DNA from: Trissonchulus latispiculum
Lineage: Eukaryota > Nematoda > Enoplea > Enoplida > Ironidae
Assembly (NCBI GenBank): GCA_030248195.1
Contig: JASAND010019833.1
Span: 1 to 64,000 of the forward strand
DNA: 64,000 nt
Reading direction: 5' to 3'
Within the stretch, counting starts at the first letter, position 1; the number at the start of each line of letters is the position of its first letter. Under the pieces are notes generated by a model. The model worked only from the letters and a program-made list of their open reading frames with translations. It made no database searches and was not told the DNA's origin. Positions 691 through 36,155 of the stretch are shown here, in pieces. The translations under genes were made by a program, and so were the position numbers.

Positions 691-786
691 TAAGTTGCAA
701 AGTACCTAACATAAGGTAGTTATAGGCCCCCTTTCCAACACACTCTACCAAATATAGTCTCCAAATATAAATATTTATTCTGTTGG

Positions 787-798
787 TTCTATTTTCAG
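787..798 (+). promoter_or_regulatory. Possible splice acceptor at the 5' edge of the receptor exon
   Basis: A pyrimidine-rich tract ending in CAG directly precedes the receptor reading frame, which is open from here to the ATG at 840. It may join an upstream untranslated exon or short coding exon. Confidence 0.45.
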
Positions 799-839
799 TT
801 GAAAACAAATCTGCCAATCGAGAGCTTGCGGATGTTGCA

Positions 840-2399
840 ATGTTTCTGGATGACAGCAACTCCAGCTGTGACTTTTCCGGCGAGGAGCTTACGCCGATGT
901 CGTGGTACTTTGAGCTGAGCATTAGCTCATCGCTGTGCTGTCTGCTGATTCTAACGACAGTCGTTGGCAACGTGCTGGTGATCTTGGCGTTCAGCACGGA
1001 CCCGAAGTTGCAAACTCTCACTAATTACTGGATAATAAGTCTATCGCTGACTGACATAATCCTTGCCCTAACCATCATGCCCGTCGCACTGATTAGTCTA
1101 AACGCGGGCCTCTGGCCCTTCGGTACGATCTGGTGCGACGTCTTCATCGCCATGGACGTGCTGTGCTGCACCTGTTCGATCTATCACCTCTGTCTGATCA
1201 GCATCGATCGATACTTCTGCGTTCGATACCCCGTCCAGTACCCCAAGTATCGAACGAAACGAACTACCGTCATTGCCATCTGCGTCGCTTGGCTCTGGTG
1301 TGCGGTCATCAGTACTCCACGCCTGTTCGGTTGGAAGGATTCTTGCACCTCCCCGCTCCAGTGCAAGATGACCAACCCGTCCTACATCATCGCTTCCTCC
1401 TGTATGTCCTTCTATATCCCCCTAATTGTCATCATCTCTATGTACATATCCATCTATAAGATCACCAAGTTTCAGTCGCGCCGCTTCCTGCGGCGCGGTT
1501 GGTGGCGTGGCAATCGCGGTGGCATGCCACCGATTCGTCAGGTCGTTTCGCCCGTTGCCGGCGGGCCTACGGGTACCCTCAGTTCCTCGCCAAACCAGGG
1601 TCAATCGGTGACCGAAGTCACCGATTCCATGGCGACAGGGTTCGCCAACGATGATTCCCCGCCCCAGAGTGGGGTGGGTGGCGCCAAACGGTCTGTGGCG
1701 AACTCTCACAACCGTCTGCCGGTGATTCCCGAATCTGAACCGGCCCCGCCATCCCCGAGACGACTGAGTGCTCGAGAACGGGGCGGCCCGATGACACCGA
1801 CACTGATGCGTGCTCGAAGTCAACGGTTCTCGCTCCGCCGGTCGACTGAGGTCGGTACGGACCTCCAGTCCACCAAACTGATCTCAGCTCGCGGCATGGA
1901 AAATCTGACCGTGATCTCGAAACTGAACGGCGAAGAGTCTGGGATGAAACGACTGGCCGTCCCTACGTCCGGGGACGACTGTCTGTCCCTTCAGGGTCTG
2001 CTCGAACCGGGCGATTCCAGCCACCATTGGAAGTCCAGTCTCAGGTCCAGCTTTCGGTCAACGATGCGCGCCAGCTTCCGTCGAGCACCGCGCACGCCCA
2101 GTCAAAAGCTGCGGCGCAGTCGAGCACGTCAGGAGCAGCGGGCAGCCAAGATAGTCATGATTATCATAGGCACCTTTACCCTGTTTTGGTCCCCGTTTTT
2201 TGTGATAAACGTTGTCCGACCAATCTGTACTGACTGTGCTCTGGACGGTACTCCCTTCACCGCCGTTACCTGGCTCGGTTACGTCAACTCCGCCGTGAAC
2301 CCGTTCATTTATACGTTTTTTAATCGGACGTTTCGAAAGGCGATCCAGGCGTTTTTGACCTGTCAGTGGCGCCACAACGCCGCACTGTTGCGAGCTTAA
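840..2399 (+). CDS. Aminergic G-protein-coupled receptor (dopamine/serotonin/octopamine type)
   Basis: Rhodopsin-class plasma-membrane receptor of 519 residues. It should bind a biogenic amine and couple to a heterotrimeric G protein. Visible marks are the TM1 GN (43-44), TM2 Asp72, the disulfide Cys99 before TM3, the amine-binding Asp106 of TM3, DRY at 123-125, TM5 Ser186/187/190 before Pro194, TM6 WSPFF from Trp450, TM7 WLGY, and NPFIY at 487-491. The three TM5 serines and WLGYVNS suggest a D2-like dopamine or serotonin-type ligand, but I cannot choose. The cytoplasmic loop 3 is very long (about residues 210-430) and rich in Arg, Ser and Pro, as in many invertebrate amine receptors. An N-glycosylation site (NSS) lies at residues 7-9. 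I start at the ATG at 840. The frame stays open upstream to a good splice acceptor (TTCTATTTTCAG, ending 798), so a 5' exon may exist. TM1 to TM7 are all in this one exon and it is intact. Confidence 0.9.
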   Translation: MFLDDSNSSCDFSGEELTPMSWYFELSISSSLCCLLILTTVVGNVLVILAFSTDPKLQTLTNYWIISLSLTDIILALTIMPVALISLNAGLWPFGTIWCDVFIAMDVLCCTCSIYHLCLISIDRYFCVRYPVQYPKYRTKRTTVIAICVAWLWCAVISTPRLFGWKDSCTSPLQCKMTNPSYIIASSCMSFYIPLIVIISMYISIYKITKFQSRRFLRRGWWRGNRGGMPPIRQVVSPVAGGPTGTLSSSPNQGQSVTEVTDSMATGFANDDSPPQSGVGGAKRSVANSHNRLPVIPESEPAPPSPRRLSARERGGPMTPTLMRARSQRFSLRRSTEVGTDLQSTKLISARGMENLTVISKLNGEESGMKRLAVPTSGDDCLSLQGLLEPGDSSHHWKSSLRSSFRSTMRASFRRAPRTPSQKLRRSRARQEQRAAKIVMIIIGTFTLFWSPFFVINVVRPICTDCALDGTPFTAVTWLGYVNSAVNPFIYTFFNRTFRKAIQAFLTCQWRHNAALLRA

Positions 2400-4350: not shown

Positions 4351-5390
4351 TGATTTAAGCCTGGTTCCCAAACGGTCAGTTGGGATATCATGCAAATGCA
4401 CGAGACCCAAATGTCCTTTTTAACCCAATACTTTGAATATTATTGAATCTGAAATTGAATATTATTATTATTGAATACAAAAAGGCTTGTCAGTATCGTG
4501 TCTTTCAATGTTTTATTTAACATATATATTAATTAATAATTCCAAGGCAGCGGTAACTTATATGTTCTGCTTTCAGTTGTCACTCTGTCTGTTTTTTTGT
4601 TAAGTTCCACACAGCAATTTCTACACGGATTGTATGTGGAAAATCTTACAAATTGACAAAATTATGATCATTGGTAAATGTCTTGGAGGTGTGCAGAATT
4701 TTTAGCTAGTTTATTGGTACCGATTAGTTAACTTTTAAGAGTGTCATGTTTTTAAATTAGTCCCAAATTTTCACTCCTTTGAACCAGCTGTAATAGCTCC
4801 AATTGGCCAATTTATGTTTCCCATGCAGAACGTTAAATTTCAACTCAAATACTAGTCGTATGAAAACATGAGCCCTGATTTGTAGTTTACATGCCATTGC
4901 AGCTTTTCGTTGGCTGGAACTAGCTTCCCCTTGGGCTAGTTAGAATGCTGGAGATGGCTGTTTTGGCCATTAGCAAGACGAGATGTTGAAACATTTAAGT
5001 CTAATCTGGAATTCCGATGCGTTCAGTAGCGAAAATCGTGGAAAGCGACAAATCGGATGCGGACATTAACTAATATTTGAAGGAAGACAGTTGACACGAA
5101 ACACCTGTTTTATTCAATGGCAATGAACAAAAAATGGCATATGAAGAAAGCTCCTGTTAAAACCATAAGTATCCCAACTGCCCTTCTAACTAACGGTAGC
5201 CAATGTAAATAGAACTGAACCAGTAACAAACAACCAGATTCTGATTCTGATTCTTGAAAACACCAGCCAGCAGAAAATCGCAAAACTAAACATACAGTTT
5301 TTGTTGGCTTTATAAAAATAACCTGTTTCAACAACAAAGCGAATGTGAAAACTACAAACCATAAAAAGTTTAGAAGCAAAGCTACACCAA
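4351..5390. other. Intergenic, no gene seen
   Basis: AT-rich sequence without convincing coding potential. Confidence 0.35.
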
Positions 5391-5398
5391 GTTGGACC

Positions 5399-6313
5399 GG
5401 CGTACATACACAGCTTCTACAATACACAGCTCCTACACACTTTTGTTGTAGGAGCTGTGTATGAAATTAAAGGGTAAACTGGAGGTCAAACATAAGTAAG
5501 ATTACGGTAGTTTACTTATGCAATTTCTTTTTCAAATCAAAGAAAATACTGGTTTTAATTTATTGTTTCAGTTAACTTTCTTGGTTACTGAAACAAAAAT
5601 TAAACTAAATGCTTCTAAACAACAAAATGTTGTCCTTGTAACATTAAAGTAACCAACTGCAGTGATTGTAATTGCAATAAAAGCTTTAATTTGTTCGTAA
5701 ACACAAAATTGTTCAGTGTTTTTAAAATGAGTCAAAATAAAACTATAGTAATAAAGTAACCTGTCTATCCATTATCGTATGCTAAGAATGTAATTTTGAA
5801 GAAATTGATAGACATTACGAAAACATTAGAAATTGAAAATTAGACATTAGACATTAATAATATTTGACTTGTTGAAATATTAGTAATGAGATAAAATAAA
5901 AAATAAAATTCAACTTTTTTGAAATTTTTTGAAAATTTAAAGTTTTCTTACATACACATTGATTAGAAGCATCTGTTGTCAGTTTCATTTTGTGTATATT
6001 ACATTTGCGGTTACTAAACTACGAGTTTATGTCAGTTTCCAATTTGGGGGGAAATAGTTAAATTGGGTCTTTGGGAGGATAGTTAAAGAGAACCAATCAA
6101 ATAATGCAAGGTAAGCTGTTTACCTTATGAAGAGTATTTGTACAATACGTAACTTGTTTACCATTCGAATAGCAACAGTGTAAGTAATTACTCAATTTCC
6201 AAAATACTTCTCTCTGACATTTAACTATCGTAATCGATTTGTAGGAGCTGTGTATTAGATGCACAGAGGTCATTTGTAGGAGCTGTGTATTGTAGCAGCT
6301 GTGTATGCTCACC
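5399..6313. mobile_element. Non-autonomous DNA transposon with perfect 8-bp TSD
   Basis: A 915-bp element bounded by inverted repeats (left GGCGTACATACACAGC, right end GCTGTGTATGCTCACC) and flanked by a perfect 8-bp duplication GTTGGACC at 5391-5398 and 6314-6321. Subrepeats of the type CTCCTACA/TGTAGGAGCTGTGTAT lie near both ends. The interior is AT-rich with no transposase. The 8-bp duplication fits the hAT superfamily, although the terminal bases are not the usual CAG/TAG. Confidence 0.7.
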
Positions 6314-6321
6314 GTTGGACC

Positions 6322-7192
6322 AAAACTTTCTTCACAATAACTCGCTCGCGCCTCGTTATAGTTATGTGCTTTCTAATGTTTCTTAATGTTAAGTGCACTA
6401 TTAACTTCCTTTCGCTTTATCGAAGTTTATGATGGCTTTAATTAAAAGAACAGTTGGGATAATTATTATAAGGAGAAATCCCATGGTGCCAATGTTTATT
6501 CTCTTAGATGCAATGAACTGAATCAAAGGACTTTGTTTAATCCATTTTATGCATTCAATTTTTATATACCGTGTAATTTGTTTCAATTTCTCAAAGTACT
6601 ATTCAATAGTACATCATTGTTAGCAATAGCAGGGGGAAACGTTTATCTTGCTAAATTGCCCTTAAATGAATAGAGCAGATTTCAGTTTAATGATTGGTGT
6701 TCGCAGAATGACAATTGCGATAGGTTGTTTCTTCCTATTTCGTCATTAATTTATTCACTTCTTTTACTTTCACTGGTTGACCTCTGACAATTGAACCGGG
6801 CAATGTTAATTTTGCACTTCTCAACTGATCCAACTCATTTTAATAAGGCTTGTCTGGTGGCATTAACAATAAAATTTTACGGCGGAGTGTTTTAACAATT
6901 TAACAATTTAATTTAATTTAACATTAACAATTTCGGAGTGTTTTTTCAGTATTAACACATTTCTTCATCAAATCACCTGAACGTCAAAAATTGTGATTTC
7001 TCGGCATGTTCACTTGAAGCATTCAAAGTTGTCAAACTTCATCTCACTTCACTTCAATTGACAGCGAAATTGAGGATAACATAGCTTCCGATATGAAAGA
7101 GATCCAAAGAAAATCTGATCTAGTTACTGTCTTGATTCTTAAATGTTGATATGTACGGTTTGAAAATAAAGTAAAACAAACAATCTTCTTCT
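6322..7192. other. Intergenic, no gene seen
   Basis: AT-rich. A local repeat of TTTAACAATT near 6890-6930 is the only structure I notice. Confidence 0.3.
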
Positions 7193-10333: not shown

Positions 10334-10626
10334 TTAAATGTGAATGAACACACTTGAATCAGTGCTCATAGGCGGTAGGCGGTTTACACCGCCGCTCTAC
10401 AGAGTTAGAATGAAGGGTGATCCAAGGTGCTCGGCAGCACAAGCATCTCACCCTTCTGGCTGCAAACGAGGTATGGGAATCCCACCACGAACAGAGCACT
10501 TATTCAAGTTTTAACCCACTACTTAAGGTTTTAACCCATTTGATTGCAGGTACTTGATATACCTGCGTCATCTGCCGTTAAGACTAATTCCGAACCCCAT
10601 TTCCGATCCGAGTCTTCTCGGCGCCG

Positions 10627-11412
10627 ATGAGGGGAGGATTGGACACCGGAAATCCGGCTGCGCCTAGTTCTGTGCAACAGGATGTGGACGCTGTCTCATC
10701 CGTGGATCAAACTTCTGAGATGGAAACTTCAACTGAGGGGGATCCTCGAACTTTCGACGAAACTTTGAACGACCAACTCCGAATCGAGAAACTTAATAAA
10801 CTTTTAGTGAAGAAAACTGGTTATGTCCGTTTGGACTCTGAACTTTTTCGACTGAAGGACTACGAGATCGTGCAACTAATTGTCGACGGAAATTCGGCGG
10901 AAGTTAAGCCACAAACTTTGAAACGTATTGGACGAAGTTTAGTTCTGACTTTTCAATCGCATGAAGCTCGTGAATTGGCGGTGAAGGACAAACTCAAAAT
11001 TGGTCAAATTTTGGCGGCGGTGGATCGACCGATGGAGGAGTTAGGAGTTGAGCAACCCAGGAGAGTTCTGCTGAAAATTCGGGGAATTCCAGAAATGGAC
11101 TCGGACGATCACGTTTCGAACTTTTTAAAAGGCCTAGGGTTCCCCCCCTGTTCTGAGTTTCGCTGGGTGGAATATGGACAGACGGGAATACGAGACGGAC
11201 GCCGGTCGGTCTGGGTCGCGGTTCCTAGAGGCAAAAAGGTTCCGGGTTTCGTGCGGTACCAATGCCAGACTGTTAAGCGTAGCCTTAAGATCCATATCTG
11301 GTACAAAGGATCACCGGATTGGTGTAGGAGGTGCCTGGGAGAAGGCCATTGGCACAAGGATTGTCCAGATCAGGGACGACCACCTTTAGGGGAGCCTGGT
11401 AAGTGGAGGTGA
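10627..11412 (+). CDS. Retrotransposon ORF1 protein (RRM-like plus zinc knuckle)
   Basis: 261 residues. The region around residues 140-220, with LLKIRGIPEMDSDDHVSNF and a Trp/Val-rich strand pattern, looks like the RNA-recognition part of Tx1-type ORF1 proteins. Cys233-Cys236-His241-Cys246 forms a CCHC zinc knuckle (CRRCLGEGHWHKDC). Such proteins bind the element's RNA and package it for reverse transcription. The frame ends in TGA (11410-11412) but continues open in the same frame into the NADAR segment. The stop is therefore either one mutation or a read-through point in a longer ORF1-NADAR polyprotein. Confidence 0.8.
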   Translation: MRGGLDTGNPAAPSSVQQDVDAVSSVDQTSEMETSTEGDPRTFDETLNDQLRIEKLNKLLVKKTGYVRLDSELFRLKDYEIVQLIVDGNSAEVKPQTLKRIGRSLVLTFQSHEARELAVKDKLKIGQILAAVDRPMEELGVEQPRRVLLKIRGIPEMDSDDHVSNFLKGLGFPPCSEFRWVEYGQTGIRDGRRSVWVAVPRGKKVPGFVRYQCQTVKRSLKIHIWYKGSPDWCRRCLGEGHWHKDCPDQGRPPLGEPGKWR

Positions 11413-12121
11413 GGAAACAAGGACCCCCCCAGCAAGAGGTTCTCGGTCAAAAGCTGGATTGGATTGGATTCAAAAGAGACGGAGGCGGTCTTGTCGGAGG
11501 GTCCTCCACGGCTGACTAAGGAAGAAGAAAAATGGAAACGGGCCCTGGTGTCCTATGAGGAGAACATTAGAGGGTATGGGTCAAAAATTACCCCTTTTTT
11601 TCGGAAGATCTACGACTTTTCGAATCACGCCCCAATTGGGTTTAAAAGGGATGGCCTGGATTTCCCTACGAATGAACACTATTATTTTTGGCGAAAAGCC
11701 CGGAGTTTTGGAGACGAGCAAGCGGAAATTTCGATTATGGAGTTCCCGGACCCTGTACGGGCGAAACGGATTGATGGTGGCATTACGGGGACCTCCAATT
11801 TAATCAGGAAATGGGAGATGTCTGAAAAGTACGAGGCAATGTGGAGTGGCATAGAATCCAAATTTATTCAGGGGGGCTAGGCTTCGCCTTTTCGAAACCG
11901 ACGAGACCCGCTTAGTGGAATGCAATGGAAATCCAAAGGATGAGTGGGGCTGCGGACTAGCCTTGGACGACCCGAACGTCGCCAAACTTGACTGCTGGAA
12001 ACAGCCTAATGTTCTCGGAGATATGCTTACCCAACTTCGGCGTTTCATGATTCAAGATCCACAGTATAAGGATGAATTTTCTGCTATGAAAAATGGAGCC
12101 AAAACAGTGAAAACTTCTTAA
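11413..12121 (+). pseudogene. NADAR (YbiA/DUF1768) domain, in frame with ORF1, one frameshift
   Basis: Family marks in order: YDFSNHAP (start of the fold), PTNEHYYFWRKA (family pattern PT-x-EHY), AKRID, W and KFIQ near 11830-11870, then LFETDETRLVE, WGCGL, and NVLGDML followed by LRRFM. These follow the order seen in bacterial YbiA. NADAR proteins bind or hydrolyse ADP-ribose derivatives, and some remove ADP-ribose from nucleobases. The domain starts in the ORF1 frame (from about 11555). It shifts frame at a run of six G at about 11871-11876 and ends at TAA 12119-12121. A lysine/glutamate-rich linker (about 11464-11560) joins it to ORF1. Relative to the family, Gln of EHYFQ is Tyr-Phe here. 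I infer it was part of the element and not captured later, because ORF2 follows directly once the TTAA insert is removed. Confidence 0.85.
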
Positions 12122-13129
12122 GGTGCTGGTATCGTTTTGTGCAGTGCTTTTGTGGGTAGTTTTTGAAACGCCCTAACTTTCGCAATTTTGCGAATTGGAA
12201 AGAGCTTTATACATCATTTTAAAGCTTATAATCTGTATATTCTCATGCAAGTACGAAACTAGTAAACATCCGCAAAAATAGCGAAAATTTTCTGACATAC
12301 TGACATCTGACCGACTGAATATTGACCAAAAATTTTTGAACATCGATTTCTCAAAACTGTGCGATCGGTCAAAATTTTTTCTTGCACCGACCTATAAAGG
12401 ACATGTGGGCCGAGGGACATTTTTTGGGATTTGGCTCAGCAGGTCTTAACGGTCAAGAAAATCCATTAAATGTGCGGTGACACAAAATTTCGCAACTTTG
12501 CATTGAGTTTTCTCGCAACTGGAGATGTTTTAGCTCAAACCAAGAAAAATGTCCCTCCGCAATAGTGCGAGTTCTCATTCTGCCAAAAATCACGCGAATC
12601 CATTGGGTAGTTTTTGAGAAATCGATGTTCAAAACAAAATAATCGCAGTTTTGCCAAAATGGTTTTTCGGCCAAATCTCTAGCTTAGAGCAACAAACTCC
12701 GGCTAATAGGTATTGATAAAATGTGCAATGAGACTGTGTATCGATCGAGTATAAATAAACCAAAATTGTCCGTACGATTTGGCAGTAATTTTGAAAAAAA
12801 CTGATTTTCTCGAAAACGGCCATTTTTGGACCCCAAAAATCGTTTTTTGCTTATACTGACTTAACCACTAGAGATAGCTCAAAAGTTGTAAAAGCAAAAA
12901 TGTTCATTTTGGTACCCTCTTTCCAGCCATACCAACCAATCTGGTGTCTTGACTATGTGCTAAGAGAATAATGGCAAAAACCAAAAATTTCTTATCTTTG
13001 CACCTAAAAATGCGGGACTGGTCCCAGAATGTTAAAGAGCACCGAAATAGTATATTTGGAAAGTTTCATCCACTTTCATAAGGAATTAAAGCCTATAGGG
13101 TCAAATTTACACAAAGCGATACCAGCACC
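12122..13129. mobile_element. TTAA-flanked DNA element (piggyBac-like, non-autonomous)
   Basis: A 1008-bp element with inverted ends: left GGTGCTGGTATCGTTTTGTG, right end matching it with one mismatch. It is flanked by TTAA at 12118-12121 and 13130-13133. TTAA duplication is the hallmark of piggyBac. The interior has no transposase. The left TTAA supplies the stop codon of the NADAR frame. Removing the insert leaves about 46 bases between that stop and the ORF2 ATG. Confidence 0.75.
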
Positions 13130-13168
13130 TTAAAGGATGTTTCTGTTTTATTTCTATTTTTCGTCAAA

Positions 13169-16100
13169 ATGCAGGCGCAAAATGCCTTCTCCTTCGCGAC
13201 ACTGAATGTCGCAGTTATAAATTCGATTGAAAAAATCCAACAAATCTACCTGTTTTCGATTTCGTTTCAAATTGTTTTTCTTCAAGAGACAAATCTCAAC
13301 AAGGATAATTGGTTTAAAGAGTTCCACAAAATATTTGAGCATAGTTTCGAAATTCATCACTCTTTTGCAACGAAAAATAAAGGAGAAGGAATTTCTATTT
13401 TGGTTAATAGATATTTTGTTGGCGCTAATTTTGTTGACTTTTATGAATTACCTGGAAGAGCGTTAGGAGTTGAGACAAGAATTGGTGATAAGTTGTTAAA
13501 ATTGATTAATGTATATGCCCCAGCTACTCCAGAGAATCGGCCAAAGTTCTTTCGAACTTTATCTCACAATTTGAGGAATCGATTAGTTTGTGACACAGCA
13601 ATTTTAGCTGGCCATTTCAATTTTGTGGAATCACTTGAATTAGATAGATTCTCTTTTCATAACTAAAGATCAACTCAAAGAGGGAATACTGAATTTCAAA
13701 CTTTAAAAAACTCAGGGAACTTCAAGGATGTTTTCAGGTCTTTTCCCGGGAGGGAGGGATTTCTCGTTCTTCTCCAGTGCCTGGGGTTCAAGAACTCGAA
13801 TTGACAGAATTTACGCTTTTGAAAATTGTGCAAATTCGTGTGTTAAAATTGAACACAAGCCAGTGTCGTTTTCTGATCATAGCTGTGTTTGTGCTCATTT
13901 CGCTTTCGGAATTCTTTACTTAAACAGAGGAAAGTCGTATTGGAAAATGAACACTTCACTCCTTGATAACCAGGCATTGCTAGAGGAGTTAGAAGTTATT
14001 TTGGATTACTATTCTGAAACGTTTCGGCTTTTTCAAAATTCCTCGCAAACTTTAAAAAGGTGGGAAGCTTTAAAGTCGGATGTTCAAGAACTATTCCAAA
14101 GACATGGGAGAATTCCATCTAAAAGGAAGAAATTTCAGCGGTCGATATTAGACAATAACTTGGCGAACGCAATTTTATCCGGAAACAGAGACCGAATTAA
14201 ACTTGCTAAAGCTGAACTTAAGAAATTGGAACTAAAGGAAATTGAGGCAATTTTAAGAAGAGCTCATAGATCTGACGAGCTAGCTGATCGATTCACTCTT
14301 AAGACTGCAAAATTGCTTGAAAAACAATTAGCAGAAAAACGGTTTTTTATTCCATTAGGAAAACTAATGGCGAGATTGAGACTGATTGTGCTGGAATTGT
14401 TGGTGAGATAAAGTCGCAATACGAAAGTTTGTTTAGCAGTAACGGAATTAACCTGCAATTAGCGGCAAATTTTCTCGCTAAAACTAACATTTCTTTGTCG
14501 AATGCTATGGCGAATCAACTTGAACACCCAATTTTGGAGAAGGAAATCGACCTTGCGATCCGCACAATTCAGGACAAGAAAACTCCTGGGAGTGACGGTA
14601 TCCCCATCGAATTTTATAAATTGTCGAAAGAAAAAGTGCCCATTCTAAAAAGCGTTTTCAGAGCCTGTTTTGAGTTAAATCGTGTACCAGGGGAAATGTA
14701 CTATGGTATAATTTCGCAACTCTTAAAGGGAAAGAGGGATAGGAGGGACCGGTCAAATTGGCGTCCCTTGAGTATGCTGAACTTAGACTATAAAATTTTG
14801 GCGAAAATTTTGACAAATCGGTTAAAAAGGTTATGCATGCACTAGTGCATCCTGACCAATCGTGCGGAGTGCAAGGTCGAGATATCAGAGATTCAGTAAT
14901 GAATCTCTATGAGCCTTTCATATCTAGACCACAAAAATCAAAAAGGCGTTTTTGTGTCGGTTGACCAAATGTCTGCTTTCGACAGATCGAACGGGACTTT
15001 TTGCAGATGACTTTGCGTCACTTTGGCTTTGGTGAAAATTTTCGCTAATGGCTTGAAATAATATACAAGCAAGGATTTGTGAAAAGTTCAGTTTTGGTAA
15101 ACGGTTTCATTTCGGAATCTTTCCAGCTGCAAAAAGGGATTAGACAGGGATGCCCTTTATCCAAACTTTTGTACGTTCTGTGTAATGAAATTCTCTTAAA
15201 TCATATTCGAAGTAATCCAGAAATTAGGGGTATTTCAATTGAAAATGAGGAACGCAAGGTCATTGCATACGCCGACGATGCAAACTACTTACCGAAAGAC
15301 TTTTGGTCAGCTGAAAAAGTTGAGGAAACTTATACTCTCTACGAGCAAGCATCTGGTGCAAAACTGAAAGTTGCTAAAACAGTAGTAATTCCGCTTGGCG
15401 TTCACGTACCAGATAAGTGGAAGAGATTCGAAAAAGATAAAGCCAAAGTTTTCGGTGTATTCATCGATCGAAAAGGTCTCAACGAGGAAGAAGCAGAAAA
15501 CAAATGTTTAGAAGTTGCTGAAGGAATTAGATGTTCAAGCCCTCCTTTGAGAACTTCTCATTTTGCTAGAGTTAATGGGCTCATGACCTATTTTCTTTCT
15601 GAAATTTGGTACCTTTCCTGGTTTTTTTGCTTTGAAAGACGATTTGGTAGAAAGAATTTTGAAAACTGTGGTAGGGTAAGTTTGGCATCCCTCAAAAAGG
15701 AACTTAATTGCCAGAAACCGTGCTTTTCTCCCTAAGACGAAGGGTGGGATAGGCTTGCCGGAAATTCAAAGGAGGATTTGGGCTCAAAGGCTAGCTTTTG
15801 CTTGTAAGAGAAGGATCGATGAATCCCGAGTTTGGTTCAAACCTTTTGATTATCTATATTTTGATTATTTTGATTCGGCATTACCACTTCAGTTTACACC
15901 ATTTGGTGTTCTTTTTAATGGCAAAATTGTGGAAAATACAAAAGTTAAGTTGAAACACTTTTATGATGAGCTAGTAACTATGAAGTACTCAGCATTTTTG
16001 TTGCCAGTTCAGCAAAAATGGCAGGAAGAATTTGAATTAGGCGAACTTTGGCCGAGAATCTGGAATAATGTTAAGACTGGTTTTGTATCATACTTAGCTA

Positions 16101-16642
16101 GAGATGTTCATTTGAAATTGATTCACAGATCGCTGTTTACTAATATGAGAATTGTTAGAGTAGATGAAACTGAATCTGAATTTTGTAAGATTTGTATTTT
16201 TATTAATTCTGGTTACTATGACGATACTTACGTGCACTGTTTTGCAGATTGCCATGGATGCCTGGAGAGAAGGGCGACCTGGATCATTGGCGCAATAATT
16301 GCTCAGCTTCCCGCCAATCAAAGGGCCGATGCTCAGCCTGTCTTCGACCTCATTAATCAAACGCAGCCCAAAATTTTTGGCGCAACTTTACCTAATCTGA
16401 AACGGTTGGAAGCGACGTCAAACCTTCTGATCCAGGAAGTCCACGGCGCAATCTAGCGATCGAGGATGAAACTTAACAACCGTCACACCTTCATTGACCC
16501 ATGCGAATACTACTTACGATCACTTTATCGTCTGAGAAGCAATGCGAAGAAAACCCTCGATCCGAAGATTGTGGCCGCCAAACTGAAGGGTGTCCATGGA
16601 CCATTTGATGAAAATTTTAAAATTAACGGAATTGAAGCATAA
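13169..16642 (+). pseudogene. Retrotransposon ORF2: endonuclease and reverse transcriptase, decayed
   Basis: Pieces lie in shifting frames: 13169-13666, 13728-14411, 14429-14845, 15079-15735, 15755-16456 and about 16467-16642. Endonuclease marks are FLQETN, NVYAP, an AGHFN that should be AGDFN (catalytic Asp lost), SRTRIDRIY and SFSDH. Reverse transcriptase marks are KTPGSDGIP, NWRPLSMLNLDYKILAK, a motif-A remnant VDQMSAFDR near 14955, GIRQGCPLS and AYADD near 15270. A C-terminal Cys/His segment (CKIC, then YVHCFADC) follows near 16190-16250. The product would nick target DNA and prime reverse transcription. Stops and frameshifts show that it is inactive. Confidence 0.8.
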
Positions 16643-16746
16643 ATAATGAACTTTAACCTGTATGATTGTATTGAACGTAGTATGCACTCATTTATAGCCG
16701 GTATTAAGTAATTGTATGTATAGATTATAGTAAATATGTAAGAGTC

Positions 16747-17515
16747 CACTACTTATCTTCCTATGGAGTATACAGTACACTGACGGTGGACGTCTGAGTG
16801 GCGAATTCCTAGTTGTCATACATCCTAGTTGTCATACACGCTATGATTGGACATTAAGAAATTAGGTGAGAGTTGAACGCTCCATCCCAATGAGAAAATT
16901 TCTTCCAATTTTTGTATGAGATTAACACTCTGCACTAAGTGCAGGGTTTAAAATTAAAACTTTTAAGGGGAATTGGATTACGCAGTCAATTGTAATTTAT
17001 TTTTTCTAAAATTGAAATGAAAATTATGTAGGTTACAAACTGAAAAACATATACTTAATATCCCTAATATTAAAAAATTCATACCCTATTTTTGAAAAAC
17101 CTTTTCCGAAAAATAAAAGCTATACACATATCTGTATATATTTTAAGTGACAGATTGTCGTTGTCGCTCTACAGATTGTCGTTTCCTCTACCAAGTGTTC
17201 TACCCCCTCATGCAGTTCTGCGAGATAGAATAGGAATGGTACACTAAAAGTTTGACAGATTAAGCTATGTGCTAGGGTGAGAAGTTGTAACGTAAATTTG
17301 ACCAGTAAATGCAGGTCACATTCTGGAGTAGTTTATTGAGAGGATGGCTACGCGTTTTAATCATTAATATAGAACTGTTGACTGACGCTCTGTTCACTAT
17401 GCAGTCTGTCTAGGCGACACACACTACTACATTGCGGACTCATAGACTGTACGCTTTAAAAGACTGTACACCTACCTTCTGTCACACTCTTATATATTAA
17501 GTACTCTTATATATA
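16747..17515 (-). repeat. LTR of a Gypsy-like retroelement, copy 1 (3' side)
   Basis: Shares with 20515-21650 the start CCACTACTTnTCTTCCTATG, a long block from about 17225 (AATGGTACACT) through GCGTTTTAATCATTAATA and GACACACACTACTACA, and the end CTTATATATTAAGTACTCTT. The outer ends are approximate because TG/CA termini are not obvious. A stretch at about 16795-17195 is absent from the other copy. Confidence 0.6.
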
Positions 17516-30670: not shown

Positions 30671-30794
30671 AAAAACGAGTGCCTTGCAGTCACTCAGGCA
30701 AAGCCTTAGTCCGAAACAGGAGAGAGCCAAGTCCTCACCCTACTGGCTAGTAGGTCAGAAGTTATTTTTATCATTACCTATGTGAAACACTTAC

Positions 30795-31799
30795 ATCAGT
30801 AAGGCTGCAGGTAGGAACGCCTGGAAAGACAACGGCGGAGCACCGACAGACGGCCTGTTCGGCGATGGCGCGACAGTCGATTTCGCAGGTCGTGGATCGC
30901 GGAACGATCTCGCCCGCCTGAGATCGCTTCCGACAGTTCACTCCGCGACCCGGAATTCGGACCGTATGCTTCTTCTGCAGCCGGATTCGACTGGCCTGCT
31001 GCATCGGAAGCATATTGGTCGTCAGATGGAGGCCGGCCGCTTCGCTCGGATCCGTAACGACGAATTCGAACGCAGCGATGATTGCCGGATCCAGATCCAG
31101 CAGACGGTTGAGTTCCCGGGAAATTTCCCGAATTTCCGTGTCGTTGATCTTCAGAATGCCCAGGAATCCGTTTTTGAGCGAACTGGCCTCCTGTGTGCCC
31201 GTATCGGTTATCGTATGACACAAACCGATATCCGTATGGTACACAGGAATGGTCGAATTGGGAGTACAGCACTCTACAGAGCTAATCCCGGCTTGGCCAC
31301 GAAAGCAGGCATACATAAAGTCTTCGCACTTGAGGCCGAAATTTTTGAAAAATTGCTCCGCACCGGATTTCGACAAATCCTCTGCCTCGTACAGGAACGT
31401 ATTTCGGCCCATATTCACGTCGGGTTTCGGCTGTTTCCATTCCGAAATTCCGGAACGGAGAAAGTAGTCATTAAATTTCAGGTACTTTGACCGGTTGGCC
31501 AGGTAAGGTATGAAATTGGCCAGAAATTGCGGGCTGGCCCCGGCCAGTCGCAAGGCTGTAAGGTTCCAAAAGTTGGCCACAGGTGGGCAAATTGTGAGAT
31601 AGGGCAGGGGTATGTTATCACTGCGAATGGTGATAACAGTCGTTGTGGGCGGGGCGTTAATGTAGTCCTGAACGTTCAGAAAACACTGATACAGAATCAT
31701 GGCAGCCGCGCTTAGGATTACAGTAACCCACAGGCAGCGTTCCATGATGTGGGCTCCCTTGTTGGCCACGTAGACTACACCGTGAAATTCTACCACCAT
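30795..31799 (-). CDS. DEG/ENaC channel gene 1, exon 1 (N-term, TM1, ectodomain)
   Basis: 335 codons from an ATG at 31799 to a GAT|GTAAGT donor, phase 0. Residues 6-7 are the His-Gly gating motif. TM1 is about residues 22-40, followed by LPYLTICPPVANFWNL (the post-TM1 TICP motif of the family). Cys-rich parts follow (LKCEDFMYACFRG, SSVECC, TCEIDCRAIAEQAVCRCSA). The protein would be a plasma-membrane sodium channel subunit forming homo- or heterotrimers. The ligand (proton, peptide or mechanical) cannot be told from sequence. It is a tandem paralog of the gene at 33231-35639, with the same motifs and exon boundaries. Intron 1 is 5.5 kb because of an inserted inverted-repeat element. Confidence 0.9.
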
Positions 31800-31959
31800 G
31801 ATGAATTCGAAATTGGAATTTTCGGAATTTCAAGAATTTCCTAGGTAAAATCCATAGTAATCGAAAATTTATTTGCGTGCAACATGGACAATCTGAAAAA
31901 GACAAACTTTCGTAGATTATACATACGAGTACGAGTACAGCATACGACCATTATATTAT

Positions 31960-32250
31960 ACTACATATATTATATTATATTATATTATATTATATTATAT
32001 TATATTATATTATATTATATTATATTATATTATATTATATTATATTATATATTAAATTATATTATAATTATATTATATTATATTATATTATATTATATTA
32101 TATTATATTATATTATATCATACTATATTGTATTATATTATATTGCATTATAGTATTAAATTATATTATATATTATATTATATTATATTATATTGTATTA
32201 TAGTATTAAATTATATTATATATCATTTTATATTATATTATGTATTATAC
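31960..32250. repeat. (TTATA)n microsatellite
   Basis: About 290 bp of pentanucleotide TTATA/TATAT repeats with few interruptions, starting about 160 bases upstream of the gene 1 start codon on the minus strand. It lies where a promoter would be expected. Confidence 0.85.
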
Positions 32251-33230
32251 TATTTCATAATATGATCGTTAACTTAATTCAAAAGTACGTATACACGTAA
32301 GTCTTTCAATGTAGATATAATTGCATCAAAATGTAGCAGTTTGGGAGTAAATAAATAAATGAAAAAATAAAATAAATAAAATAAAAAATAATAAATAATA
32401 TCAATAAAATAAATAAATAAATATTATAATAAGTCTGTGGTAGTAAACAAATAAATTCTTTTCAGTATTTGAACACTGAACAAAATTATCTATAATCCAA
32501 AAATCTCAACAGTCTGCATTCCAATATTTCAAAACTATTTATTTCAGGTCAAAACTTGGAAGACTGGAGTAAGGTAAGCAATCTTTATTTCGTTAAATGT
32601 TTATGGAGTACATAAACAGGTGCAACTGACAGACAAGATCCACTATTTAAACCAACCATAGAAATAAAATAAAATAAATTTTTGCAGGTGTCAAAAATTG
32701 ATTTGACCAGACATTAAAATAATTACGATTGCATCAACTTATTCAGCACCACTATAAAATAACTTGAATTTTAGAATCAAATCTCAACCTTTCCAAATAT
32801 TTTGGCTTCTGTAAATTTTCTAAATTTTTGTTGAGTTTAAGAACTAAAACATAAATTTAAGAACGCAGTAATTTTTGTTGGATTCAATTGCAAAACAATT
32901 AACAGTGACTCTTACAGGTAACAAGTTTTAATCACAGATCAAGCTATAACATCCACATAAAAGAAGAACACAACATTCACTTCCTTCGAACAATATGTTT
33001 GGCAGAAATCTTACCTCGTCAATTAATTAAATTAATGGAGACCAGTACTAATATAAATTTGAATCTAATTTTTAGAAGTTTCCTTTTAGTTTTTTAATCA
33101 AAGCGACGTCATCAAGTGCCTCTTTCCCAATTCCATAATTGCTTCACATTTCCAAATTCGTGTTCCGGTTTTTTCGATCTAACTTTCGGGAAAATTTCCA
33201 CATAGTTCTAATATCTTGGTCCACCCTTTC
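32251..33230. other. Spacer between the two DEG/ENaC genes
   Basis: AT-rich, with AAATAAATAAAA runs near 32350-32430. It should include the 3' UTR of gene 2. No other gene seen. Confidence 0.4.
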
Positions 33231-33624
33231 TTAGCACTGAACAACAACATTATTCAGATTAGGATAATGGTGATTTGCACTAATAATACTATTATTATTA
33301 CTAGCTGCGTTATGAATATTAGTATTATGATTAATATTATTATTATTATTTGTGCTATTATTATTGTTGTTGTTGTTGTTATTCATTTTCTGTTTCAGGG
33401 CAGCCTCAACTTTGCCACACCCAGGATATCGTAACTGACTTCGAATCAGCCCCGCGAAGATCAGGGTCAACTGCAAAAACGTGATCGCCGAACAGCCCAA
33501 CCAGATCCCCATTTGACCCCCAATTGTGGAGATCAGATTATTTAGGACAATGGTTTGCTGGATTGTCTCCAGTTTGTAGCTCAAATCGCCATACTTCATC
33601 ATGAATACGGTCGTATTCTTGGGG
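33231..33624 (-). CDS. DEG/ENaC channel gene 2, exon 3 (TM2 and Asn-rich tail)
   Basis: Follows acceptor ATTTTAG and joins exon 2 in phase 2. It encodes PKNTTVFMMKYGDL, then GGQMGIWLG and TM2 with the GCS selectivity filter. A cytoplasmic tail of about 65 residues is dominated by asparagine from an AAT/AAC microsatellite (33250-33385), with runs of nine and five Asn. Stop TAA at 33231-33233. The joined protein is about 525 residues. The Asn-rich tail is absent from the paralog. Confidence 0.85.
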
Positions 33625-33943
33625 CTAAAATAACAGAAATATAACTGAAATAAGGAGTGCTTTTTTAATTTTTCACTTTTTCTTTCACATTTTTCTTTTT
33701 TTTAAAGGGAGGCAAAAACCTTCAGGCAAACTAATGTGTGACCACATCGTAATCAGCACCAAAAAGATTTAAATCTTAACATGTTCTGCCTCGCCAGTAT
33801 TTGTTAGTTAATTTTGTTAGTTTTTTCATACAATTTGGCAAAATTCGCAAGTTTTTTTCTAAAGTGTTGATGCAATGCTTTGGAAACATTGCAATCTTTA
33901 TTATTATTTACAATTATTTTAAAATGCCATCTGAAAAACTAAC

Positions 33944-34119
33944 TTTATGTCATCCGTGACTTCGAAATAGGCTCGAAGAAATTCGTCTCGCATCGGGTAA
34001 TGGGCGGTTTCAATTTTAAAGGTCCATTCTTCGCAAGGAACGGTTTTGTAACAGTCAGGCAGACATTTATTGTAAATGTCTTCTAGCATTGGTAGCTTTC
34101 TTTCATAGCAATAGAAGGA
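33944..34119 (-). CDS. DEG/ENaC channel gene 2, exon 2 (Cys-rich ectodomain)
   Basis: 176 bp, acceptor TTGTTTTAG, donor GTTAGT, phases 0 and 2, the same as in gene 1. It encodes SFYCYERKLP, CLPDC and PCEEWTFKIETAHYPMRDEF, clearly homologous to exon 2 of gene 1. No stop codon in frame. Confidence 0.8.
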
Positions 34120-34245
34120 CTAAAACAATGAAAAAAGCAATTAGAACAAATAAAAATATAAAAATAAACTAAAATTTAATTACGCCTTCTTGTCGCTCTT
34201 TTCACTTGTGCTGTTTCTTATAGTCATCAAGTATACAGCACATCA

Positions 34246-34320
34246 AGAAAATGAAGTAAACGCGTGCTGCCAAACGCAGACGGATCCACGAAGGATGCAA
34301 GGCATTAATCATAAAGGAAT
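34246..34320 (-). other. Intron-1 block shared with DEG/ENaC gene 1
   Basis: Counterpart of 30598-30670. It shares AAAATGAAGTAAACGCG, GCTG and CATTAATCATAAAG in the same order inside the homologous intron. Confidence 0.45.
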
Positions 34321-34631
34321 GCTTTATTTATGAATAATACATCCGTTTAAAAAACGTTCAGTTTCTACTCTGTCCAAAGCTTTAGTAAATTAAATTTTAA
34401 TTTTAATTTTCTTAAGTTTTATAATCACAAGAACTCTTTCGAGAGCTTTGATATTTTTGATATTTTGACAATTGTAATTTTAAGTTAAATAAATCTTAAA
34501 TCTTTCTGAATTCAATCAATCTTTAATCTAAACAACCATAAATAATCAACCTACTGATCTAATTTTAGGTTAAGTAAATCTTAAGTCTTAAATCTGAATT
34601 CAATCAATCTTTAATCTAATTAATAACCTAC

Positions 34632-35639
34632 TGATCTAAAGCTGCAAGTGGTGAGATTCGGAAAAATTGTGGCCGAGCAGCCGCAAACCGTTACCTCTGC
34701 CACAATTCGACAGTCGATTTCGCAGGTCGTCATTCGCGGTATGATATGCTGCCACTCATGGACCTGTTTACAGTCCACCCCCCGACCAGGGTAGCGAATG
34801 ATATGGGTAGCCTCCAGGCTTATGATTGTGGCATACTGTACGGGCAGGTAAGAAGTGGTCATTTGCGGTCCCGCGTCATAGGTCGGATCCGAAACATAGA
34901 ATTCGAATTTCGAAATCAGGGCCGGAGCACTGCCCACGAACTGATTTAGTTCCGTGGCCGTTTGCATGAAGGCAACTTCATCGAATTGAATCACGCCCAG
35001 AAATCCGCTTTTCACGGAATTTCGTTGCTGCACTCCGGTATCCACGAATTTAAGGCAAAGGTTGGAGAAGGGGCCTTGAATCGGTTTTGCGTTCCCAGCG
35101 CAGCAATCCGTTGATTGTTCGCCCTGTCCGCGAAAACAGGCGTACATAAATTCGCTGCAGGTCAGGGTATAGTCGGTAAAGAGACAATCCGGACAGTCGA
35201 AATTCGGTGCCAACTTTTGGGCCTCCTGAACGAAATCTTCGGCTTTCATCGGAATCGCCAGTGATTTTTTGTCCGTGGCAATCTCCTCATTTCGACTCTT
35301 AAAAAAGTGCAAATGACTCAGATAGACATCTCTGTAGAGCATATACTCAAGAAAAGCGTACAGAAAGTCCACACTAACATTTCTGGCACGCATGGCCGTT
35401 AGGTTCCAATAGCCCGCTACCGGTGGGCATATGGTAAGATGGGGTAACGGTATACTGGGATTTTGAACGGTAGTTGTGGTCGTAGTTGGGGGACTGTTAA
35501 GATAGTCCTTAACATTTAGACTGCACTGATACAGTCCTATTCCTGTAAAAGTGATCAAAAATACGATCCATAGCCCCTGTTCGAATCTGGTGGCATGAAT
35601 GCCCAGAATATTTTCCACGCCGTGTATGTCAACGGTCAT
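34632..35639 (-). CDS. DEG/ENaC channel gene 2, exon 1 (N-term, TM1, ectodomain)
   Basis: 336 codons from ATG 35639 to a TCA|GTAGGT donor in phase 0. Residues 6-7 are His-Gly. TM1 follows (LWIVFLITFTGIGLYQC), then LPHLTICPPVAGYWNL. The ectodomain cysteine pattern matches gene 1 (FMYACFRGQG, TDCC, TCEIDCRIVAEVTVCGCSA). A sodium channel subunit at the plasma membrane. Both paralogs are on the minus strand, gene 2 upstream of gene 1 with a 1.4-kb spacer, so a tandem duplication followed by divergence is likely. Confidence 0.9.
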
Positions 35640-36155
35640 GACATTATGTTAAGCAAGAGATCTGAAATGCAAAAAACCATACTGAAATTGATAAAAATAT
35701 AAAAAATGTGAAGGTCAGATTAGTAGATCAATCCGTTTCAATAGTGGTAAAGATAAAATCAATACTAAGTTAAACTTAAATTAGTTGATTTATGAGGTGT
35801 AATATGTGTAGTTAACGATAAACTGGGACCATAGGATAAAGTAGGGGGACGTAGGATAAAGTACAGTATAATAAAATGGGGGGGGAGGTTGCAGACATCG
35901 ATCGATGGGTCAGACCCCTTTAGCGAAAGGGAAAAAAGGGTAGTCCCTCTAGTGCAGAAGGAAAAAGGTAGACCAAATGTTGCACATGCTTCAACACCTT
36001 TTAGCGATTTTATTCAAAAATTTTTTAAAAATTGCAAAATCTTTATTAATTTTTGATCGTCTTTTGAAATACCCTCGCCAGAGCCGGGTTAGACTCCCAG
36101 AATCTGTCCCCGTGGTAATGTACATATGCTTGAGGCCCATTAGAAAACAGAAGGC
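35640..36155. other. Intergenic upstream of DEG/ENaC gene 2
   Basis: Contains a small repeat of TAGGATAAAGTA (about 35835-35870) and short G runs. No gene seen. Confidence 0.35.

What the first reader, a model, noticed from the sequence alone, without database searches (positions are those of the whole stretch)
11413..12121. A NADAR (YbiA-like) domain encoded by a non-LTR retrotransposon
Downstream of ORF1's zinc knuckle, in the same frame, the sequence shows the ordered NADAR marks YDFSN, PTNEHYY, AKR, KFIQ, LVE, WGCGL and NVLGDML. ORF2 follows. Known NADAR proteins handle ADP-ribose adducts, and some remove ADP-ribose from guanine. I infer the element may use it to reverse ADP-ribosylation of its nucleic acids or proteins by host PARP-type defence. 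I know of no description of a LINE-borne NADAR domain, but I cannot search.
Basis: partly seen in the sequence, partly recalled or inferred. Interest (0 to 1): 0.92.

Follow-up and report, generated by a model that had tools for sequence, protein, structure and literature searches.

The report
ADP-ribose enzyme in LINE retrotransposons' ORF1
A family of animal "jumping genes" of the LINE-1 type carries, fused to its RNA-packaging protein, an enzyme domain that in other organisms strips ADP-ribose from guanine, and this domain is kept under strong selection, which suggests that the element needs it to copy itself.

Summary

The host genome (734 Mb, unnamed animal) settles the key question. The family has many copies, some with open ORF1-NADAR and open ORF2. 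Of 34 scored RT matches in frames of at least 1150 aa, 31 have a NADAR match 2 kb upstream, and the other 3 have NADAR or a remnant there. dN/dS of NADAR is 0.064-0.160. The catalytic Glu/Lys/Glu set is kept. So NADAR is a standing, selected part of the element.

LINE-borne NADAR is already in print, in one sentence, for oyster Tx1 LINEs (PMC12477816), so this is a new member of a known kind. More striking, Gypsy-like and Polinton-like stretches of the same genome carry separate NADAR clades. The function, ADP-ribose removal in the retrotransposon RNP, is inferred.

The parts
10516..10525 (+). candidate target-site duplication, left copy (CCACTACTTA)
   Evidence: 10-bp direct repeat with 16746-16755, one of four repeats of 9-11 bp found between the two flanks; picked because the following bases resemble the 5' region of the unit in L062 (by eye)
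10526..10629 (+). 5' part of the LINE before ORF1 (5' limit inferred)
   Evidence: similar to the 5' region of the unit in L062 (blastn, window 10527-11355, 63% identity)
10630..11412 (+). ORF1, N-terminal part with one CCHC zinc knuckle; ends at an in-frame TGA in this copy
   Evidence: zf-CCHC_3 E 0.0085, below cut-off; 52-89% identical to ORF1 of the five other loci that cover most of it or part (L051-L054, L056, L060)
11413..11880 (+). linker and first piece of NADAR, same frame as ORF1
   Evidence: PF08719 7.9e-8
11855..12121 (+). second piece of NADAR, other frame; ends at the ORF1 stop TAA
   Evidence: PF08719 5.8e-6
12118..13133 (.). 1008-bp insertion (12122-13129) flanked by TTAA on both sides with 20-bp terminal inverted repeats; a nested piggyBac-type non-autonomous DNA element by its TTAA (class recalled)
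   Evidence: 19 of 20 TIR bases match; joining the flanks gives 35-nt spacing
13169..16639 (+). ORF2: APE-type endonuclease, reverse transcriptase and C-terminal part, broken into five frame pieces
   Evidence: tblastn with the open ORF2 of L062 covers residues 1-1183 at 47-52% identity; Exo_endo_phos 0.004, RVT_1 2.7e-6, both below cut-off
16746..16755 (+). candidate target-site duplication, right copy

Best explanation
What it is (shown): one decayed copy of a large LINE family of the L1/Tx1 group whose ORF1 protein is [N-terminal region]-[CCHC zinc knuckle]-[linker]-[NADAR]-[basic tail], followed 35 nt later by ORF2 (endonuclease-RT). The NADAR domain is native and under strong purifying selection. 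How it works (inferred): ORF1p coats the element's RNA and so carries a NADAR enzyme into the ribonucleoprotein. There NADAR hydrolyses the N-glycosidic bond of ADP-ribose adducts on guanine bases (LINE RNA, cDNA or target DNA) or close ADP-ribosyl products made by host ADP-ribosyltransferases, keeping the template readable or the RNP free of a host mark. Identity and integration I hold at about 0.97; an active ADP-ribosyl N-glycosidase serving the RNP at about 0.5; specifically countering a host defence at about 0.3.
For: Pfam, PDB and fold matches. Residues at the ADP-ribose in P. nicotianae NADAR (E43, K50, E125, D130, W133; passages of PMC11543638) pair with E88, K95, E169, D176, W178 of the read-through (alignments; chain-to-paper numbering by my hand count). 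In 14 other LINE sequences (13 distinct copies, as L057 and L062 overlap; all picked for open frames), E88, E169 and W178 are kept in 14 of 14, and K95 is K in 11 and R in 3; PMC11543638 says K to R still works in vitro but does not rescue cells. Open ORF1-NADAR plus open ORF2 in two diverged lineages: C1314:36652-37287 with its ORF2 in L062 (frames 567 aa, and 1183 aa from the ATG) and L063/L067 (544 aa and at least 1119 aa; 1196 aa). 34 of 34 scored RT matches with a frame of at least 1150 aa have NADAR or its remnant upstream; 23 of the 34 also have an ORF1-NADAR frame of at least 500 aa. NADAR dN/dS 0.064-0.160 in 9 distinct, partly overlapping pairs; bootstrap upper limits 0.132-0.277 in five pairs. 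A human L1 precedent for contact with an ART: PARP1 is captured with nuclear L1 ORF2p, less so with EN or RT mutants (passages of PMC5821459). All NADAR/YbiA proteins tested in PMC11125620 cleaved guanosine-ADPr (passages).
Against: No activity, substrate or host ADP-ribosyltransferase was tested. The arginine that contacts ADPr in P. nicotianae NADAR (R79) is G, H, A or S in the LINE copies examined, so binding may differ. In L063-L066 the D176 column is a gap in that alignment, although a D stands five residues after the Glu in the printed sequences. L070, a third lineage, lacks the usual D and W there (SPHSQFFG). E. coli YbiA is known for acting on riboflavin intermediates (PMC11543638, PMC9303266, passages), so other N-glycosides are possible. 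The fold shows no function by itself.
Confidence: 0.5

Rival explanations
1. NADAR is a reader, not an eraser: it binds ADP-ribose or PAR without cleaving it and so tethers the RNP to PARP-marked nicks or replication forks, where target-primed reverse transcription happens.
For: PARP1 sits with nuclear human L1 ORF2p (PMC5821459, passages); the R79 equivalent is lost, so chemistry may be altered.
Against: The catalytic Glu pair is kept in 14 of 14 LINE sequences compared and in the read-through; a pure binder would not obviously need both.
Confidence: 0.2
2. Metabolite cleaner: NADAR removes free ADP-ribose derivatives or modified nucleotides (riboflavin-like N-glycosides, cyclic ADPr signals) in the cytoplasm rather than acting on macromolecules.
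For: YbiA acts on riboflavin intermediates, and phage NADARs were proposed to act on small ADPr derivatives (passages of PMC9503650).
Against: The domain is fused to the CCHC-bearing ORF1p, which points to an RNP-bound substrate (inference). RNA-virus NADARs are argued to act mainly on macromolecular adducts (same paper).
Confidence: 0.17
3. Structural part only: the fold serves ORF1p assembly or RNA binding and the enzyme is dead.
For: Another LINE ORF1 enzyme, the ZfL2-1 esterase, was proposed to act through lipid and membrane binding (abstract of PMC3905857), so ORF1 enzyme folds can be put to other use.
Against: Catalytic residues conserved together with very low dN/dS.
Confidence: 0.1
4. 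Passenger or chance capture: a host or viral NADAR sequence that landed in this one copy.
For: The window copy is decayed and was the only one in view at first.
Against: 34 of 34 scored long-ORF2 copies have it or its remnant; the eight LINE NADARs in the tree form one clade 100/100; purifying selection.
Confidence: 0.01

Closest known systems
Tx1 LINEs of Crassostrea gigas with NADAR-like ORF1 (PMC12477816, passages read)
   Same: YbiA-family NADAR in ORF1 of a LINE of the L1/Tx1 group
   Different: Reported as 'divergent hits' in Repbase, without copy counts, selection or active-site analysis in the passages I read; I could not compare sequences (supplements not available). The host here is unnamed and may or may not be a mollusc.
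[quoted passage not shown]
   Same: Retroelement-borne YbiA-family NADAR
   Different: LTR element, other position; here it is ORF1 of a LINE. The Gypsy-like elements of this genome have NADAR at the end of a separate ORF after Pol.
P. nicotianae NADAR 8bau and E. coli YbiA 2b3w
   Different: 24-32% identity; LINE copies lack the R79 equivalent; fused to a LINE ORF1
LINEs with captured enzymes: SGNH esterase in ORF1 of ZfL2-1 (PMC3905857, abstract) and virus-derived SF1 helicase in TRAS ORF2 and Jockey ORF1 (PMC5563155, abstract)
   Same: Extra enzymatic domain fixed in a LINE protein
   Different: Other chemistry; proposed roles are lipid/membrane binding and suppression of RNA silencing
Nematode SNA-3, three NADAR domains in SL1 trans-splicing (PMC9303266, passages)
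   Same: Animal NADAR associated with an RNP; mutation of catalytic-residue homologues inactivates it
   Different: Host protein, not mobile

Membership tests
NADAR superfamily (PF08719) | Profile match above the curated cut-off | tested here: met
   67.4 bits vs 35.1 for the read-through; each piece alone is below the cut-off; four open relatives 83.8-102.2 bits
NADAR superfamily (PF08719) | YbiA/NADAR fold | tested here: met
YbiA subfamily of NADAR | Catalytic Glu in the last strand (Asp in BC4488, His in phage gp30.3; PMC11125620, passages) | tested here: met
   E169, in LVE, aligned with the Glu of LVE in YbiA and of LYE in 8bau
Active NADAR | Hydrolysis of guanine-ADPr | not testable with these tools
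   needs enzyme assay
L1/Tx1 group of LINEs | APE endonuclease plus RT related to L1 ORF2p rather than R2 | tested here: met
   RT piece: L1 ORF2p 1.5e-20 vs R2 1.2e-3; open ORF2 of L062: L1 ORF2p 5.5e-75 over residues 6-874, best R2 1.3e-11. Only LINEs with solved structures were compared, so other APE-type clades were not excluded by this test.
Tx1 clade proper | RT groups with Tx1 rather than L1 in a tree | not testable with these tools
   no Tx1 reference sequences were at hand; the CCHC in ORF1 and the oyster precedent only suggest it
LINE of two-ORF type | ORF1, then ORF2 close behind, many copies, target-site duplication | tested here: met
   35-nt spacing; 150 RT matches scored of 966 first-look candidates; the duplication is a 10-bp candidate only

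The most novel reading that the evidence does not exclude
In this one animal genome at least three unrelated kinds of mobile element (L1/Tx1-type LINEs, Gypsy-like LTR elements and Polinton-like DNA elements) each carry their own amplified, catalytically conserved NADAR lineage, because the host silences mobile nucleic acids by ADP-ribosylating their bases; NADAR is then a shared counter-defence currency, and the elements point to an undescribed nucleic-acid ADP-ribosylation defence in animals.
Probability: 0.2. Interest if true: 0.93.

Novelty: new member of a known kind. Interest (0 to 1): 0.68.

Why it matters
ADP-ribosylation of nucleic acids is well shown in bacteria (DarT) but its role in animals is unclear. 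A retrotransposon family that keeps an ADP-ribose eraser-like domain in its RNA-coat protein under strong selection says that such adducts, or close kin, may matter to retrotransposition in this animal. It offers a direct assay (does the LINE NADAR erase guanine-ADPr, and does the element need it?) and a pointer to a possible host ADP-ribosyltransferase defence against transposons. That three kinds of element in one genome carry separate NADAR clades makes chance capture less likely.

Tried and rejected
Passenger or single-copy artefact: rejected. Programmed readthrough or frameshift inside NADAR: rejected, since open copies read ORF1-NADAR without stop and ORF2 of the window copy is broken too. 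NADAR as a separate ORF: rejected, no ATG before its core. Recent borrowing of the LINE NADAR from the Gypsy-like or Polinton-like NADARs of the same genome: not supported; each set is its own clade. A first tree with the window copy alone put it on a branch of 3.6-4.4 changes per column and was unusable.

Led nowhere: protein searches of the 5.8-billion set with ORF1-NADAR and with NADAR gave nothing at E<=0.001, although NADAR relatives exist, so that tool's word filter probably missed them; the ORF2 piece found 24 RT relatives without informative names. The search for related loci with single proteins found none (RT piece in viral contigs; P0001 in viral and genome contigs). The single-sequence model of ORF1 (mean pLDDT 41) says nothing. 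LTRs were sought by self-comparison in 9 Gypsy-like stretches and not found (they may lie outside the stretches held), so 'Gypsy-like' rests on Pol alone (scanned in L030, L033, L038), and 'Polinton-like' on integrase plus packaging ATPase in L040 (no PolB or capsid looked for). Host identity was not determined. Codon usage of NADAR was only weakly closer to ORF1 than to ORF2.

Selection caveats: 14 sequences were compared; only pairs with NADAR dS below 1.5 were printed (12). L057 is the same copy as one in L062, leaving 9 distinct pairs, which share sequences and are not independent; NADAR dN/dS was lower than ORF1 in 7, equal in 1, higher in 1 (L053/L054, 0.160 vs 0.102). Sequences were picked for open frames, which favours low values.

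Control: 14 of 150 had NADAR at that distance downstream. Among the 31 linked long-ORF2 copies the distance is 1972-2164; in some of them the NADAR match is partial or in a short frame (for example C2163:8250-8474).

Full report
What was claimed.

Frame 11413-11880 and frame 11855-12121 carry the seven marks in order. Each piece matches Pfam NADAR below the curated cut-off (7.9e-8 and 5.8e-6). Read through as one broken protein (P0001) they score 2.3e-18, 67.4 bits against a cut-off of 35.1. E. coli YbiA (2b3w, 1.1e-7) and the ADPr-bound P. nicotianae NADAR (8bau, 7.9e-4) match by sequence. tblastn finds 423 phage records at E<=0.01, best E 4e-16 at 37.7% identity, and 56 plasmid records at E<=0.001.

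The element. ORF1 (from 10630) has a single CCHC knuckle, weak by profile (0.0085, below cut-off). An in-frame TGA (11410-11412) and a frame break within NADAR mark decay. The 1 kb between NADAR and ORF2 is a nested insertion: TTAA on both sides, 20-bp inverted termini with 19 of 20 bases matching, 1008 bp; joining the flanks leaves 35 nt between the ORF1 stop and the ORF2 ATG at 13169. ORF2 spans 13169-16639 in five frame pieces. A 10-bp direct repeat, CCACTACTTA at 10516 and 16746, is a candidate target-site duplication; three other repeats of 9-11 bp were listed in the same scan. The RT piece is nearest human L1 ORF2p among solved structures (1.5e-20; R2 at 1.2e-3). Tx1 or L1 clade could not be decided for want of references.

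Other copies. The window lies in G000, an assembly of 733.8 Mb in 21732 contigs. Neighbouring genes in the window are animal: a rhodopsin-type receptor and three open stretches that match amiloride-sensitive sodium channels; the species was not identified. Searching G000 with P0001 scored 150 of 878 candidates; 64 of these 150 rows have an open frame of 500 aa or more. The nearest copy (C8862:12933, L051) is 82% identical in the search and 85-93% in the pieces compared. Open copies read ORF1-NADAR without a stop: N-terminal part, CRRCxxEGHWHxxC-like knuckle, linker, NADAR, and in most a basic tail. L062 (C1314:28900-37300, minus strand) holds the end of the NADAR frame of one copy (frame of 567 aa, 233 aa of it in L062), its ORF2 of 1183 aa from the ATG with endonuclease (1e-9) and RT (3.1e-30), and then ORF1-NADAR of the next copy (frame of 535 aa). 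This ORF2 matches human L1 ORF2p over residues 6-874 at 5.5e-75. A second lineage has ORF1-NADAR of 544 aa (L063) and then an ORF2 frame of at least 1119 aa in L067 (1196), 39.7% identical to the first.

Is NADAR always there? Searching G000 with the RT piece scored 150 of 966 candidates. 86 of these 150 have a NADAR match 0.8-4 kb upstream on the same strand, with a median distance of 2.0 kb; 14 of 150 have one at that distance downstream. Of the 34 with an open frame of at least 1150 aa, 31 are linked, all at 1972-2164 bases, and in 23 the NADAR sits in a frame of at least 500 aa. I fetched the place where NADAR should lie in the other three: one has an open, divergent NADAR (L070), one a frame-broken NADAR (L069), one the C-terminal end of NADAR without its front part (L068). 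So 34 of 34 have NADAR or its remnant. The 61 shorter RT matches without a linked NADAR were not examined. Because the query came from a NADAR-bearing element, this says nothing on more distant LINEs of the genome.

Selection. NG86 on codon alignments of open copies: NADAR dN/dS 0.064-0.160 in nine distinct pairs with dS 0.085-0.88; ORF1 before NADAR 0.076-0.442. The pairs share sequences. Codon bootstraps for five pairs give upper 95% limits of 0.132-0.277. The domain was lower than the rest of ORF1 in 7 of the 9 pairs, equal in 1 and higher in 1. Between the window element and the L053/L054/L056 type, identity is 47-56% in NADAR, 60-67% in ORF1, 76% in the endonuclease piece, 84% in the linker and 88-89% in the RT piece of the same contigs: either ORF1-NADAR evolves fast or ORF1 and ORF2 have been exchanged between lineages.

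Origin. In a tree of 29 NADARs, the eight LINE NADARs form one clade (100/100), the Gypsy-like ones and L049 another (96/96), the Polinton-like and allied ones a third (97/98), phage and viral-contig ones a fourth (98/98). No eukaryotic host NADAR was at hand, so the donor is unknown.

Other carriers in the genome. The Pfam NADAR model scored 150 of 2478 candidates in G000, all 150 over the cut-off. I fetched 20 of these places. In L030, L033 and L038 the frame before the NADAR frame is a Gypsy-type Pol (RT, RNase H, integrase), and in L030-L039 NADAR ends or lies in a frame of 688-731 aa; a short ORF follows, and a protein kinase in L031 and L033. In L044, similar by its NADAR, the NADAR frame is 212 aa. 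The part before NADAR matches a 3'-5' exonuclease in 1 of 4 scanned at E<0.01, below the cut-off. L040 has a chromodomain integrase, an A32/IVa2-type packaging ATPase, a stand-alone NADAR and a TATA-binding protein; L046 has the ATPase, NADAR and a YqaJ-type exonuclease. These stretches were described and compared only.

How it most likely works. Shown: fold, catalytic residues, fusion to ORF1, constraint. From established knowledge: the NADAR/YbiA proteins tested in PMC11125620 all cleave guanosine-ADPr (passages); ORF1p of LINEs is presumed to package its RNA (abstract of PMC3905857). Inferred: the RNP carries an ADP-ribose eraser that acts on its own RNA, cDNA or target site. Human L1 ORF2p is found with PARP1 in a nuclear complex that is reduced in EN and RT mutants (PMC5821459, passages), and ZAP (PARP13) restricts L1 (PMC4441479, abstract and outline; its zinc fingers are said to suffice by a section title, so this is not evidence for ADP-ribosylation). 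Contact with ADP-ribosyltransferases in this animal is plausible, not shown. Rivals are a reader of ADP-ribose, a metabolite cleaner, and a structural role.

Literature and novelty. Full-text searches for NADAR with retrotransposon, transposable element, Polinton/Maverick or LINE terms, for 'NADAR domain', for DUF1768 with transpos, and for YbiA with retrotransposon gave, judged by titles and listings, one paper on NADAR in transposable elements, PMC12477816 (passages read): NADAR in Ectocarpus Gypsy Pol, and 'divergent hits' in ORF1 of Tx1 LINEs of the Pacific oyster, with role unclear. For some searches only the top 12 of 112 and top 5 of 268 papers were listed, and none of the listed rows held NADAR. 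So a LINE-borne NADAR is known in outline. New here, as far as those searches of an open-licence library go: a genome-wide family with open members, 34 of 34 linkage, measured constraint, an active-site survey with a lost arginine, and three kinds of element with separate NADAR clades in one genome.

Verdict. Real, native, selected; architecture already noted in print once; function inferred. Interest 0.68.

Noticed in passing
L030-L039, L044 (G000 contigs C8717, C4104, C15666, C10583, C16016, C5525, C6995, C4624, C470, C5542, C20750): Gypsy-type Pol (RT-RNase H-integrase; scanned in L030, L033, L038) followed by a 688-731 aa ORF with C-terminal NADAR (212-aa frame in L044; weak 3'-5' exonuclease match before NADAR in L034), then a shorter ORF, and in L031 and L033 a protein-kinase ORF; an unusual gene set for an LTR element. 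LTRs not found in the stretches searched.
   Followed up: partly
L040-L043 (C11883, C803, C7196, C6868): Polinton-like stretches with chromodomain integrase, A32/IVa2-type packaging ATPase, stand-alone NADAR and an overlapping TATA-binding protein gene (domains scanned in L040 only; the others share ORF lengths and order in part). A TBP on such an element is odd.
   Followed up: partly
L046 (C11319:1-9900): A32-type ATPase, stand-alone NADAR and YqaJ/viral alkaline exonuclease side by side.
   Followed up: partly
G000 contig C1314 (58 kb): Seven NADAR LINEs in a row on the minus strand at 6.1-7.7 kb spacing, with ORF2 frames of 764-1187 aa. At the one junction read (L062), the 3' part of one copy runs into a motif (CCATTTGATTCAGG) that the repeats before ORF1 also contain, as if elements insert into each other's 5' ends and build arrays (by eye).
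   Followed up: partly
L062, element strand 5170-6738: Two direct repeats of 793 bp, 97.5% identical, before ORF1: a 5' UTR of tandem monomers, as in mouse L1 (the mouse comparison is recalled).
   Followed up: no
window 10630-16639 against L053/L054/L056: Identity falls from 88-89% in RT to 47-56% in NADAR, which may mean exchange of ORF1 between LINE lineages.
   Followed up: no
window 12118-13133: 1008-bp TTAA-flanked element with 20-bp TIRs nested between ORF1 and ORF2.
   Followed up: yes
window 40315-41052: A reverse transcriptase piece (RVT_1 1.6e-4, below the cut-off) of another element, Penelope-like by eye.
   Followed up: no
window 771-2399; 30774-35648: Rhodopsin-type receptor in one long frame, and three stretches matching amiloride-sensitive channels on the minus strand: the host is an animal.
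   Followed up: partly
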